Below are positions 32,044 through 37,266 of a stretch of 64,000 bases of DNA, in pieces. The stretch is from a virus. The notes beneath the pieces were generated by a model. That model made no database searches, had not been told where the DNA came from, and worked only from the letters and a program-made list of their open reading frames with translations. The stretch's first letter is position 1, and each line of letters opens with the position of its first letter. The position numbers and the translations under genes are program-made. The stretch spans positions 1 through 64,000 of the IMG/VR virus record IMGVR_UViG_3300042261_002385; one strand, given 5' to 3'.

Positions 32044-34176
32044 TTACTCTTCGGTTTTCTTCTTACGAGTTTTCTTTTTCTTTTCTGATTCAATAGTTAC
32101 TACCATTTTTTCTGACTCACTGTTATAATCAAGAATTAAAGTAGAACCTTTTTCAGGATTATATTGAATAATGTCCTCTGTTAAAACATCTTCAACGTGT
32201 CTTTGTATTGCTCTTTTTAAAGGACGTGCTCCGTATTGTGGATCAAATCCTTCAGAAGCAATATACTCGATAGCAGAGTCAGTAATTGTAAGTTTGAATT
32301 CCATTTTCTCAACTCTTTCAATCAATTTTTCTAATTCAATTTTGATAATTTGATTAATATCATCTTTAGAAAGAGAATTAAACATAACTACATCATCTAC
32401 ACGATTTAAGAACTCAGGTGCAAATTTTTTCTTCAACTCTTTTTCAATCACAGCTTTTGATTCATCTTCAGCTGCTGCTAATTTATTTTTAGTTGAGAAT
32501 CCAACTCCAGTTCCAAAATCTTTCAACTGACGTGAACCAGTGTTTGAAGTCATGATGATAATTGAGTTTTTGAAATTTACTTTACGACCTAAAGAATCTG
32601 TTAATTGGCCATCATCTAAAACTTGTAAAAGTAAATTGAAAACCTCAGGATGAGCTTTTTCAATCTCATCGAGTAAGATTACAGAATAAGGCTTACGTCT
32701 AACTTTTTCAGTTAACTGACCACCTTCATCGTGACCAACATATCCTGGAGGAGCTCCGACTAAACGAGAGACTGCGAATTTCTCCATATACTCAGACATA
32801 TCAATTCTTACAAGTGCATCTTCTGAATCAAAAAGATATTTAGCTAATACCTTTGCCAACTGTGTTTTACCGACACCAGTTGGTCCTAAGAACATAAATG
32901 AACCAATAGGTTTGTTAGGATCTTTTAATCCAACACGACCTCTTTGAATAGCTTTAACAATTTTTCTAACTGCTTCTTCTTGACCAATAACTTTACCAGT
33001 AATTGATGTTCCCATTTTAGCAAGTTTTTCATTTTCATTCTGAGAAACTTTTGTTACCGGAATCCCAGACATCATTGCAACAACTTCGGCTACTGCGTCT
33101 TCATCAACTGTTTGACGATTGTTTTTCTGGTCTTCTTCCCAAGACTTGCGAGCTTTTTCTAAGTCAGTGTTTAATTGTCTTTCAACATCTCTCAACTTAG
33201 CAGCTTCTTCATATTTTTGAGAACGAATTACATCATTTTTCTTTTCTTTAATTTCAATAATCTTTTTTTCAATGTCTGTGATTTCTTTAGGAACATTGAT
33301 ATTAGAAATATGAACTCTTGCTCCTACTTCATCTAAAGCATCAATTGCTTTATCTGGTAAAAATCTATCATTAAGATATCTTTCAGTCAAGTCAACACAA
33401 GCTTTTATAGCAGCATCTGTGTAAGAAACATTGTGATGATGTTCGTAACGGTCTTTAATATTATTCAATATCTGGACAGTCTCTTCAGCAGTAGCTGGCT
33501 CAACTTGCACTTTTTGAAAACGTCTTTCTAAAGCTCCATCTTTTTCAATGTGTTTGCGATATTCATCTAACGTAGTTGCTCCAATGATTTGAATCTCACC
33601 ACGAGCTAAAGCTGGTTTTAACATATTAGATGCATCCAAAGAACCAGAAGCTCCACCTGCACCGATGATAGTATGAATTTCATCAATAAAAAGAATAATA
33701 TCTGGTTCTTTTTCCATTTCAGACATAAGTGCTTTAATACGTTCTTCAAATTGTCCACGATATTTAGTTCCAGCGACCATAGAAGCCAAATCTAACATCA
33801 CAACTCTTTTATTAAAAAGTAATCTTGAAACTTTTCGTTGAACGATTCTCAAAGCCAGTCCTTCAGCAATTGAAGACTTACCAACACCTGGCTCACCAAT
33901 TAAAATTGGGTTATTCTTTTTTCTACGAGAGAGAATTTGTGATACTCTTTCAATTTCTTTTTCTCTACCTACGATTGGATCTAGTCTGCCATCTTCAGCC
34001 ATTTTAGTCAAATCTCGGCTATAAGTGTCCAAAACTGGAGTTTTAGACTTACCTTCATTCTTCTTTGAAGAACTAGAACCAAACTTATCATCATCTTCAT
34101 CATCCTCTAAAGAAGCTTTAATGTCTGGACTTACATAATCTTTACCCTCTAAGTTATTTGTTGTGTTATTCATCAT
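32044..34176 (-). CDS. ClpC-like AAA+ unfoldase lacking the N-domain
   Basis: 710 aa with two ATPase modules. D1 Walker A GEPGVGKS (94-101) and FIDEIHTIIGAGG; a short middle segment with a UVR-like pattern (KYEEAAKLRDVERQL); D2 Walker A GPTGVGKT, VRIDMSEYMEKFA, GYVGHDEGG, LLDEIEKAHPEVF and the C-terminal YGARPLKRAIQ. A GVGF loop in D2 matches the ClpP-docking loop. The usual 140-residue Clp_N repeat domain is absent, replaced by a disordered acidic/Ser/Lys leader (1-50). It may pair with host ClpP to redirect proteolysis, or act as a remodelling factor. Confidence 0.9.
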   Translation of the reverse strand: MMNNTTNNLEGKDYVSPDIKASLEDDEDDDKFGSSSSKKNEGKSKTPVLDTYSRDLTKMAEDGRLDPIVGREKEIERVSQILSRRKKNNPILIGEPGVGKSSIAEGLALRIVQRKVSRLLFNKRVVMLDLASMVAGTKYRGQFEERIKALMSEMEKEPDIILFIDEIHTIIGAGGASGSLDASNMLKPALARGEIQIIGATTLDEYRKHIEKDGALERRFQKVQVEPATAEETVQILNNIKDRYEHHHNVSYTDAAIKACVDLTERYLNDRFLPDKAIDALDEVGARVHISNINVPKEITDIEKKIIEIKEKKNDVIRSQKYEEAAKLRDVERQLNTDLEKARKSWEEDQKNNRQTVDEDAVAEVVAMMSGIPVTKVSQNENEKLAKMGTSITGKVIGQEEAVRKIVKAIQRGRVGLKDPNKPIGSFMFLGPTGVGKTQLAKVLAKYLFDSEDALVRIDMSEYMEKFAVSRLVGAPPGYVGHDEGGQLTEKVRRKPYSVILLDEIEKAHPEVFNLLLQVLDDGQLTDSLGRKVNFKNSIIIMTSNTGSRQLKDFGTGVGFSTKNKLAAAEDESKAVIEKELKKKFAPEFLNRVDDVVMFNSLSKDDINQIIKIELEKLIERVEKMEFKLTITDSAIEYIASEGFDPQYGARPLKRAIQRHVEDVLTEDIIQYNPEKGSTLILDYNSESEKMVVTIESEKKKKTRKKKTEE

Positions 34177-35749: not shown

Positions 35750-35774
35750 ATTACTACCTTAAAAAATTAATAAA

Positions 35775-35797
35775 TAAAAAACCCATCCGAAGATGGG
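35775..35797 (-). terminator. Terminator of the tRNA / giant RNA operon
   Basis: On the minus strand CCCATC-TTCG-GATGGG followed by TTTTTTA (35797 down to 35775): a six-pair stem with a UUCG tetraloop and U tract. It lies 24 bases after the Glu-like tRNA and defines the 3' end of the RNA-only operon. Confidence 0.9.
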
Positions 35798-35820
35798 ATT
35801 TCAGTACACGTCTGGGTTAG

Positions 35821-35926
35821 CAGCCCGTAGAGGATTCGAACCTCTGTATCCTAATGAAAAGTTAGGCGTCCTCTACGTTCACGAAGTTTCTGTATCTCTT
35901 TTAAGAGTCCACTAGACGAACGGGCC
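35821..35926 (-). tRNA. tRNA-Glu-like with a ~34-nt D-loop insertion
   Basis: Seven-pair acceptor stem (GGCCCGT / ACGGGCT), Glu-type GTCTAGTGG D-arm start and AGGAC end, T-arm AGAGG-TTCGAAT-CCTCT. Between GTCTAGTGG and AGGAC is an insertion of about 34 bases (35873-35908). The anticodon stem CCTAA/TTAGG encloses CTTTTCA, which would read UUU with an unusual C37, instead of the normal Glu UUC register. A normal tRNA is about 73 nt; this is 106. Last RNA of the operon. Could be a decoy or a tRNA-like domain of the preceding RNA. Confidence 0.6.
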
Positions 35927-35931
35927 AAGTT

Positions 35932-36956
35932 TTTTTAGTGTGGGGTTACAGTACCCACCCTGTCCTCAAGAAGACAGACTCCCTAACTTAAAGGGTAAAG
36001 TTAACCACTACGAAAACTTCGTGGTCGGTCTGAGTCTCGCTCTCAGAGGTTCCTATGAACCGACCAAAAAAGGTTGAGATTACACCTTTGACGACAGAAC
36101 TTTAGTTGGATTATTGTTTCCCTTCTTATCCACTTCCTTTTGAGAAGTATTCTGTCAGTGACGATTGGTTAGACCAATCACTTCTTGAGTTACTAACTAC
36201 TCTCTACTTATTCCGCTTATTCAATCCTGCCGGACTGATTCGAGATTCGACTCTCTATAATTTTTTCGGTAAAATCACATTGGCCTTTCGAGCTTCAGTG
36301 GCTATGGACATCCCATAACTATGTAGTCACCTTTCATTAGTAACTAGGCGACACTTTCGATTTCTTAATTTTAAATGTTTCCAATTAACAGTTAGAAATT
36401 TAGTGCCTTGTAGATTTGTCGAAGTCGTGGTCACCTCTCAGCTCCCAAAGCTTTTGACCTCAGGAATACTGGACAACTCCGTGTAGTGCCTCCACTACAA
36501 CTCTTTAAGATATCTTCACTACATTTCCCCTGGTAGAGAAAAGAGTGTCAAATAACGACACCACTCGTACATTTGATTGTCTTTCAACTTTAAGACACCT
36601 CTTGAGTTGGATTCCGCAATGATAACAACCGGTGAGTCACTACTTCTTGCAACAATCCTATGGGTTAATCCTGTTCCTCTTCCGAGGTCAACCAAACAAT
36701 CTACAATTGCCTGGTCACAAATCCATTTCATCTACAGTGTTACCCTCGACTAATAAGGTTTTGTGGTGTCCCACTTGCTTACTCGACCTCAAACCCGAAG
36801 GTTTAAGACGCAAACACACTTAGCAATTGTGTTCACTTTATCCCGCTTTCACGGTTTATTTTAAGGACTATAAGCCGCCCTTCTCAACAGTCAGCCGAAA
36901 CCGACTGTTAAAGACTAATATTTCAAAGAACTATGTTCTCCGTTGAGAACTCTTTG
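35932..36956 (-). ncRNA. Giant structured noncoding RNA (~1 kb), GOLLD/ROOL-like candidate
   Basis: About 1,025 bases between tRNA-fMet and the Glu-like tRNA with no convincing gene in any frame, GC-richer than its surroundings, and dense in perfect helices on the minus-strand transcript. Examples (plus coordinates): 36924-36956 nested hairpin; 36886-36909; 36788-36807 eight-pair stem with UUCG loop; 36676-36687 with GGAA loop; 36483-36498; 36163-36179 seven-pair stem; 36023-36065 three-way junction with two hairpins; a distant seven-pair closing helix GACAGAA/TTCTGTC (about 36091-36156). Promoters lie upstream and a terminator downstream. Size, complexity and tRNA neighbours recall phage GOLLD and ROOL RNAs; family membership is unproven. 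Confidence 0.75.
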
Positions 36957-37029
<73 letters not shown>

Positions 37030-37067
37030 ATGTGTATTTTTATATATCTTATTTCATTTTTGTTTTA

Positions 37068-37099
37068 CAAAGATAAAAACTTTTTTTTAAAAAAACAAA
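37068..37099 (-). promoter_or_regulatory. Bacteroidota-type promoter upstream of tRNA-fMet and the giant RNA
   Basis: Minus strand: TTTG (37099-37096), 20-base spacer, TATCTTTG (37075-37068). Exact -33/-7 consensus. Start expected about 40 bases before tRNA-fMet. Confidence 0.75.
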
Positions 37100-37116
37100 T
37101 CTTTTGTAAAATTTTG

Positions 37117-37204
37117 TGGGAAAGGAGTGGACTCGAACCACCGAAGATCTATTGAGACCAGTCACATTACTATGTAACTCCATTTGCCGCTCTGGAACTT
37201 CCCC
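37117..37204 (-). tRNA. Type II tRNA (Tyr-like), atypical 8-nt anticodon loop
   Basis: 88 nt. Acceptor GGGGAAG/CTTTCCC, CCAGAGCGGCAAATGG D-arm like bacterial tRNA-Tyr, long variable arm (GGTCT-CAAT-AGATC), T-arm GGTGG-TTCGAGT-CCACT. The anticodon stem GTTAC/GTGAC encloses eight bases (ATAGTAAT) instead of seven. GTA (Tyr) is present but out of the normal register. Anticodon therefore undetermined. Confidence 0.7.
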
Positions 37205-37218
37205 GTCGTTTGTGAATA

Positions 37219-37250
37219 CAAAGATAAGGCAAGTTTATGGTTTTACCAAA
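37219..37250 (-). promoter_or_regulatory. Bacteroidota-type promoter at the head of the RNA operon
   Basis: Minus strand: TTTG (37250-37247), 20-base spacer, TATCTTTG (37226-37219), 15 bases before the Tyr-like tRNA. Identical -7 box and spacer to the second promoter at 37068-37099. Confidence 0.75.
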
Positions 37251-37266
37251 TAATTTAGAAAAAAAA

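What the first reader, a model, noticed from the sequence alone, without database searches (positions are those of the whole stretch)
35932..36956. Kilobase-scale structured RNA inside a tRNA operon
About 1,025 bases show no plausible gene in any frame but many perfect helices with stable loops on the minus strand (UUCG at 36788-36807, GGAA at 36676-36687, a three-way junction at 36023-36065, a long-range seven-pair closing helix). A consensus promoter precedes tRNA-fMet, and a UUCG-loop terminator ends the unit after the next tRNA. Known giant phage RNAs next to tRNAs (GOLLD, ROOL) fit the size and setting, but I cannot match their consensus by eye, so it may be a new class.
Basis: partly seen in the sequence, partly recalled or inferred. 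Interest (0 to 1): 0.9.

Follow-up and report, generated by a model that had tools for sequence, protein, structure and literature searches.

The report
GOLLD RNA with rRNA-like leader
The stretch encodes GOLLD, a known giant phage RNA that self-assembles into hollow cages, here in a huge phage; what seems new is that in this type of phage the RNA is preceded almost without exception by a short hairpin plus the 'boxA' signal that bacteria use when transcribing ribosomal RNA, which hints at how the phage makes it.

Summary
Rfam's GOLLD model (RF02032) matches minus strand 36481-36071 end to end: 294 bits against a cut-off of 150, E 4e-83. The less conserved 5' domain (~36884-36482) is homologous to that of every comparable phage GOLLD I found. 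A 30-sequence alignment supports 196 pairs, 120 with compensatory changes. The record is a 436-kb virus fragment. Its closest annotated relatives are 634- and 642-kb phages, sizes matching published Mahaphages of Bacteroidetes (PMC7162821).

GTTCTTTGA precedes GOLLD in 45 of 48 distinct phage loci, with a covarying hairpin before it in most. A leader-only scan of IMG/VR led to GOLLD in all 122 evaluable sites (85 new). I infer rRNA-type antitermination or chaperoned transcription (0.65), not shown. Four of nine ROOL RNAs checked have a similar 5' edge; Acinetobacter-phage GOLLDs lack it.

The three-way junction and flanks are lineage-specific extras. The next 'tRNA' is a tRNA-Glu-like gene with a 36-nt D-loop insert.

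The parts
37068..37099 (-). Bacteroidota-type promoter (TTTG, 20 nt, TATCTTTG) ahead of tRNA-fMet
   Evidence: sequence by eye; the same promoter type (TTG-N17-23-TAnnTTTG) lies directly ahead of the GOLLD leader at 122 of 129 sites in other phages
   Evidence: ARAGORN, Rfam tRNA 63.6 bits
36935..36950 (-). boxB-like leader hairpin GTTCTC-AACG-GAGAAC
   Evidence: stems covary between phages while the AACG/AAAG loop and the 2-4 nt spacing to boxA stay
36923..36931 (-). boxA-like element GTTCTTTGA (extended: GTTCTTTGAAATATT, 36931-36917)
   Evidence: 45 of 48 GOLLD loci; same sequence in the 16S-23S spacer of Bacteroidota
36886..36909 (-). lineage-specific UUCG-capped hairpin between boxA and the core
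   Evidence: shared with L002 and L043
36482..36884 (-). GOLLD 5' domain
   Evidence: nhmmer homology to other phage GOLLD 5' regions, E 4e-18 to 1e-126 apart from one contig-end fragment; covarying helices
36071..36481 (-). GOLLD 3' domain (RF02032, complete model 1-416)
   Evidence: 294.4 bits, E 3.7e-83
36355..36402 (-). A/U-rich variable linker inside the 3' domain, without a tRNA
   Evidence: alignment A1, columns 605-665; corresponds to the disordered linker of the env-38 structure (PMC12286853)
36023..36065 (-). compact three-way junction in the 3' extension, at the site where L003 and L004 carry a tRNA-Glu; possibly a reduced tRNA
   Evidence: Rfam DUF2693-FD only sub-threshold (18.6 bits, E 0.62)
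35821..35926 (-). tRNA-Glu-like gene with a 36-nt insert in the D loop (about 35908-35873)
   Evidence: Rfam tRNA 21.9 bits on part of it; same insert in L103 and L104, other inserts in L003 and L004
35776..35797 (-). intrinsic terminator CCCATC-TTCG-GATGGG-TTTTTT

Best explanation
A huge phage, probably of the Mahaphage group infecting Bacteroidota, encodes a GOLLD RNA. Transcription starts at a Bacteroidota-type promoter, runs through tRNA-fMet, a boxB-like hairpin, boxA, the ~815-nt GOLLD and a tRNA-Glu-like element, and ends at a UUCG terminator. INFERRED: boxA recruits the host NusB/S10 complex used on rRNA, which keeps polymerase from terminating in a long untranslated RNA and may help it fold. 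INFERRED: tRNA maturation (RNase Z after tRNA-fMet, RNase P before the tRNA-Glu-like element) frees GOLLD. INFERRED from the solved env-38 GOLLD: the RNA folds into a 5' cap domain and a 3' ring domain and assembles into a closed multimeric cage. My preferred role, weakly held, is a high-copy RNA cage made late in infection that holds or sequesters translation components. Estimated likelihoods: GOLLD identity 0.97; rRNA-type antitermination 0.65; cage 0.75; release by tRNA processing 0.6; translation-linked cargo 0.3.
For: SHOWN. Complete GOLLD model at 294.4 bits. All four sequenced relatives checked carry it at 275-291 bits. The 5' domain is homologous across 52 loci. On 30 sequences, 97.5% of cells pair (shuffles 83.8%), 120 pairs have two-sided changes (shuffles 74.1), and the covariation score is 0.459 against 0.192 shuffled and at most 0.105 when slid. 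Loop L21a carries CG in the window's lineage and GC in the other 26, the switch reported for intermolecular bridge B8 (PMC12286853). boxA: 45 of 48 loci. Leader-only scan: all 122 evaluable sites lead to GOLLD, 85 of them in newly fetched loci, and 122 of 129 sites have a promoter directly upstream. GTTCTTTGACATATTG, exact in relative L043, occurs five times in 99 Bacteroidota genomes; four lie ahead of 23S rRNA, the clearest just after a tRNA. Literature: rrn elements run boxB-boxA-boxC, after the promoter and again before 23S, and boxA is necessary and sufficient (PMC10250234).
Against: No expression, processing or Nus-binding data exist for this phage. GOLLDs of Acinetobacter phages lack a recognisable boxA, and LR756502 (L004) lacks it too, so it cannot be universal. 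The loci of the leader scan share ancestry, so the counts are not independent. PMC4807359 argues that Nus factors at rRNA act mainly in folding rather than antitermination. The host is inferred, not shown.
Confidence: 0.88

Rival explanations
1. It is a new class of giant structured RNA.
For: The 5' leader, the 3' extension and the three-way junction have no Rfam match at the gathering score.
Against: The GOLLD model matches over its full length at about twice the cut-off, and the 5' domain is shared with all comparable phage GOLLDs.
Confidence: 0.01
2. The hairpin-boxA leader is not an antiterminator but another conserved 5' feature of these GOLLDs: a processing or packaging site, a binding site for a phage protein, or a strand of the GOLLD fold.
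For: In phages the strict leader pattern was found only with GOLLD, as expected if it belongs to the RNA itself. Some loci can pair TTTGAA with a loop TTCAAA at about +21 of the 3' domain.
Against: No consistent complementary partner exists across 45 loci. The sequence matches the boxA before 23S rRNA in Bacteroidota and has the rrn order and position: after a promoter or a tRNA, hairpin first, ahead of a long untranslated structured RNA.
Confidence: 0.3
3. It is a decaying GOLLD copy without function.
For: Neighbouring tRNA-like elements look irregular: D-loop insert, three-way junction, 8-nt anticodon loop.
Against: Pairing is kept through compensatory changes across relatives 72-95% identical; leader, promoter and terminator are intact.
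Confidence: 0.04
4. The interval codes for one or more small proteins.
For: One 70-aa ORF starts with ATG on the minus strand (36519-36731).
Against: It lies inside covarying helices of the 5' domain, and the alignment has indels not in multiples of three there.
Confidence: 0.01

Closest known systems
GOLLD RNA (Rfam RF02032; env-38 cryo-EM 14-mer, PMC12286853)
   Same: Complete 3' domain model, homologous 5' domain as in other phage GOLLDs, ~815-nt core (env-38: 833 nt), phage genome, downstream of tRNA-Met, A/U-rich linker in the 3' domain, palindromic L21a dinucleotide.
   Different: Sits in a huge Bacteroidota-type phage; has a hairpin-boxA leader, a UUCG hairpin before the core and a ~140-nt 3' extension with a three-way junction; no tRNA in the linker.
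GOLLD of LR745206.1 (634 kb) and LR756502.1 (642 kb), huge phages
   Same: Same RNA at 77% and 73% core identity, next to tRNAs, unannotated.
   Different: They carry tRNA-Glu genes at the 3' end where the window has the three-way junction; LR756502 lacks tRNA-fMet and boxA upstream.
ROOL RNA (RF03087)
   Same: Giant phage cage RNA often near tRNAs; four of nine ROOLs checked have a boxA-like sequence at the 5' edge.
   Different: No sequence or structure match in the window.
Bacterial rRNA leader and 16S-23S spacer antiterminator (boxB-boxA-boxC)
   Same: Hairpin then GTTCTTTGA(A/C)ATATT after a tRNA or promoter, ahead of a long structured untranslated RNA.
   Different: In a phage, ahead of GOLLD; function untested; boxC not looked for.

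Membership tests
GOLLD RNA (RF02032) | Match of the conserved 3' domain above the curated Rfam cut-off, whole model | tested here: met
   294.4 bits against 150, model 1-416, E 3.7e-83
GOLLD RNA (RF02032) | Less conserved 5' domain, total length above 800 nt | tested here: met
   5' domain homologous by nhmmer to 51 other loci, core ~815 nt
GOLLD RNA (RF02032) | Secondary structure conserved by covariation | tested here: met
   120 of 196 pairs with two-sided changes; none of 500 shuffles reaches the observed value on any measure
GOLLD RNA (RF02032) | Carried by phage or prophage, often near tRNAs | tested here: met
   G000 is a virus record; tRNA-Met directly upstream
GOLLD RNA (RF02032) | Self-complementary L21a dinucleotide (bridge B8), GC or CG | tested here: met
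   CG in the window's lineage, GC in 26 others; loop placement inferred from published numbering
GOLLD RNA (RF02032) | Assembly into a homo-oligomeric cage | not testable with these tools
   needs in vitro RNA and cryo-EM or mass photometry
GOLLD RNA (RF02032) | Expression rising during lytic infection | not testable with these tools
   no RNA-seq for this phage
ROOL RNA (RF03087) | Match to the ROOL model | tested here: not met
   no ROOL match in 35750-37260 at E up to 10
rRNA-type boxB-boxA antiterminator | boxA sequence as used ahead of host rRNA | tested here: met
   four of five GTTCTTTGACATATTG sites in 99 Bacteroidota genomes lie ahead of 23S rRNA; window has GTTCTTTGAAATATT, relative L043 the exact sequence
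rRNA-type boxB-boxA antiterminator | Hairpin just 5' of boxA, near the transcript start or after a tRNA | tested here: met
   covarying AANG-loop hairpin 2-4 nt upstream in most loci; promoter upstream at 122 of 129 sites
rRNA-type boxB-boxA antiterminator | Binds NusB/S10 and prevents termination | not testable with these tools
   needs binding and transcription assays

The most novel reading that the evidence does not exclude
Phage cage RNAs (GOLLD in Bacteroidota phages, and some ROOLs) are made as ribosomal-RNA mimics: they carry a host-type boxB-boxA leader that commandeers the NusB/S10 rRNA transcription and folding machinery, giving rRNA-like output of a giant untranslated RNA and possibly drawing that machinery away from host ribosome synthesis.
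Probability: 0.3. Interest if true: 0.75.

Novelty: new member of a known kind. Interest (0 to 1): 0.5.

Why it matters
GOLLD's function is a long-standing open question; its cage structure was solved only recently. A conserved rRNA-type transcription signal ahead of it gives a concrete, testable clue to how phages produce it and ties it to ribosome biogenesis. The leader alone also works as a finder for GOLLD genes, and the case adds huge Bacteroidota-type phages to its carriers. The open-access papers I could search on GOLLD, ROOL or huge phages do not mention boxA with GOLLD or GOLLD in Mahaphages; Weinberg 2009 and several other GOLLD papers were not held or not read, so priority is not established.

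Tried and rejected
New RNA class: rejected. ROOL: rejected. Coding region: rejected from ORF lengths and covariation. boxA as a strand of the GOLLD fold: no consistent partner in 45 loci. boxA in Acinetobacter-phage GOLLDs: not found. GOLLD in the plasmid collection with a consensus query: no match. A boxA-plus-5'-domain pattern built for Firmicutes: no hit in viral contigs. Wider ROOL and GOLLD surveys in Bacillota genomes failed on the server, so the ROOL observation rests on nine loci. The first ROOL leader check used the wrong strand and was redone. Of the genome-contig hits with a GOLLD pattern, none is a convincing GOLLD by nhmmer.

Full report
WHAT IS THERE. The minus strand from 37099 to 35776 reads as one transcription unit: a Bacteroidota-type promoter (TTTG, 20 nt, TATCTTTG; by eye), tRNA-Met (36956-37029), a small hairpin, GTTCTTTGA, about 0.8 kb of structured RNA, a 3' extension, a tRNA-Glu-like element and a UUCG terminator. 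The interval has no ORF above 70 aa, and the strand folds much better than dinucleotide shuffles (z = -6.6).

IDENTITY. Rfam's GOLLD model matches 36481-36071 end to end at 294.4 bits (cut-off 150; E 3.7e-83); the 436-kb virus record holds just one copy. The Rfam model covers only the conserved 3' domain. The 5' domain (36884-36482) is homologous to the 5' region of 51 other phage GOLLD loci fetched from IMG/VR and GenBank with 3'-domain sequence. An alignment of 30 diverse cores gives 196 pairs, 120 with two-sided compensatory change; 97.5% of cells pair against 83.8% in shuffles, and no shuffle of 500 reaches any observed measure. A caution: RNAalifold derived the structure from this same alignment, which favours cells paired; the slide control (covariation score at most 0.105 against 0.459) and the complete match to the independent Rfam model point the same way.

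THE PHAGE. The closest annotated relatives are LR745206.1 (634,780 bp) and LR756502.1 (642,428 bp), with core identities 0.77 and 0.73. Their sizes match two of the four largest huge phages in PMC7162821, which assigns the five genomes above 634 kb to the Mahaphage clade with Bacteroidetes hosts; the link by size is my inference. That paper's main text does not mention GOLLD. Two IMG/VR contigs, L002 and L043, are closer (0.95 and 0.89).

A LEADER THAT LOOKS LIKE rRNA's. Immediately after tRNA-Met lie GTTCTC-AACG-GAGAAC (36950-36935) and GTTCTTTGAAATATT (from 36931). GTTCTTTGA occurs 57-119 nt ahead of a fixed 5'-domain motif in 45 of 48 distinct GOLLD loci; the exceptions are L061, L048 and L004. 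In most, a hairpin ends 2-4 nt before it, with stems that differ completely (TCAGGA/TCCTGA, ATCGGA/TCCGAT, GTTCTC/GAGAAC, CTTGGT/ACCAAG, GTTACTC/GAGTAAC) and a loop that stays AACG or AAAG. This is covariation in the leader itself. In 99 Bacteroidota genomes the 16-mer GTTCTTTGACATATTG (exact in L043) occurs five times; four lie ahead of 23S rRNA, and the clearest (L161, L163) show tRNA, hairpin, boxA, 23S in that order. Flavobacterium lacus has GTTCATTGACATATTG ahead of its 23S. Published rrn biology gives the same order (boxB, boxA, boxC), after the promoter and again before 23S, with boxA necessary and sufficient (PMC10250234); a folding role has also been argued (PMC4807359).

SPECIFICITY. 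Of 129 sites held, 7 are cut by locus ends; all other 122 are followed by GOLLD, 85 of them in loci not fetched before. In 122 of 129, a TTG-N17-23-TAnnTTTG promoter lies directly upstream. So in most of these phages the unit is promoter, hairpin, boxA, GOLLD; in the window's lineage a tRNA-Met is interposed. These loci share ancestry, so the counts measure conservation and exclusivity, not independent origins.

LIMITS OF THE boxA READING. GOLLDs of Acinetobacter phages (225 and 215 bits) sit inside tRNA arrays without a boxA, so the element is a feature of Bacteroidota-type phages. I found no consistent intramolecular partner for boxA. Whether NusB/S10 bind it is untested. In ROOL, a different cage RNA, four of nine loci have GTTCTTTG or GCTCTTTGA at the 5' edge (L164-L167) and five do not; the sample is small and the test was post hoc.

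CAGE FORMATION. The solved GOLLD is a 14-mer (PMC12286853). In that work loop L21a forms a self-pairing bridge and switches between GC and CG. In my alignment the loop is TCGAA in the four window-lineage sequences and CGCAA in 26 others. This agrees with a conserved intermolecular contact, though the loop was placed from the published numbering, not from the structure file.

WHAT DIFFERS HERE. Between the core and the next tRNA lies a ~140-nt extension. Its three-way junction (36065-36023) occupies the place of a tRNA-Glu in L003 and L004 and may be a reduced tRNA. The following tRNA-Glu-like gene has a 36-nt D-loop insert shared by L103 and L104; L003 and L004 have different inserts in the same place. 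In L043 a neighbouring tRNA (CAU) has about 30 nt inserted in its anticodon loop that the L002 copy lacks.

VERDICT. The useful addition is the near-exclusive hairpin-boxA leader, which suggests that these phages transcribe GOLLD the way bacteria transcribe rRNA.

Noticed in passing
window 35926-35821; L103 about 2037-2143; L104 about 2044-2148; L003 3897, 5092 and 5269; L004 3776: tRNA-Glu-like genes with extra hairpins or inserts of about 18-45 nt in the D loop, differing between phages; ARAGORN misses the window's copy.
   Followed up: partly
L103 about 2201-2304 against L104 about 2220-2295: A tRNA with anticodon CAU in one phage has about 30 nt inserted between the first and second anticodon bases; the closely related phage has none. 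It looks intron-like but is too small for a group I intron.
   Followed up: no
window 37204-37118; L003 3635-3722; L004 4839-4912: A class II tRNA (Tyr-like) and tRNA-Glu genes with 8-nt (or 6-nt, with a longer stem) anticodon loops, so the anticodon is ambiguous; conserved between relatives.
   Followed up: no
window 36065-36023: Three-way junction with a sub-threshold full-length match to Rfam DUF2693-FD (18.6 bits, cut-off 44.5), conserved in L002 and L043.
   Followed up: partly
L164-L167 against L168-L172: Four of nine ROOL RNAs have a boxA-like sequence at the 5' edge, sometimes inside the closing helix.
   Followed up: partly
L105 and L106 (Acinetobacter phages Herod and AM24): GOLLD RNAs at 225 and 215 bits lie unannotated inside tRNA arrays; in phage Ab15 (PP763259) a hypothetical protein is annotated over the GOLLD match.
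   Followed up: partly
window 32044-34176: A phage-encoded ClpB/ClpC-type double AAA+ ATPase close to the GOLLD unit.
   Followed up: no
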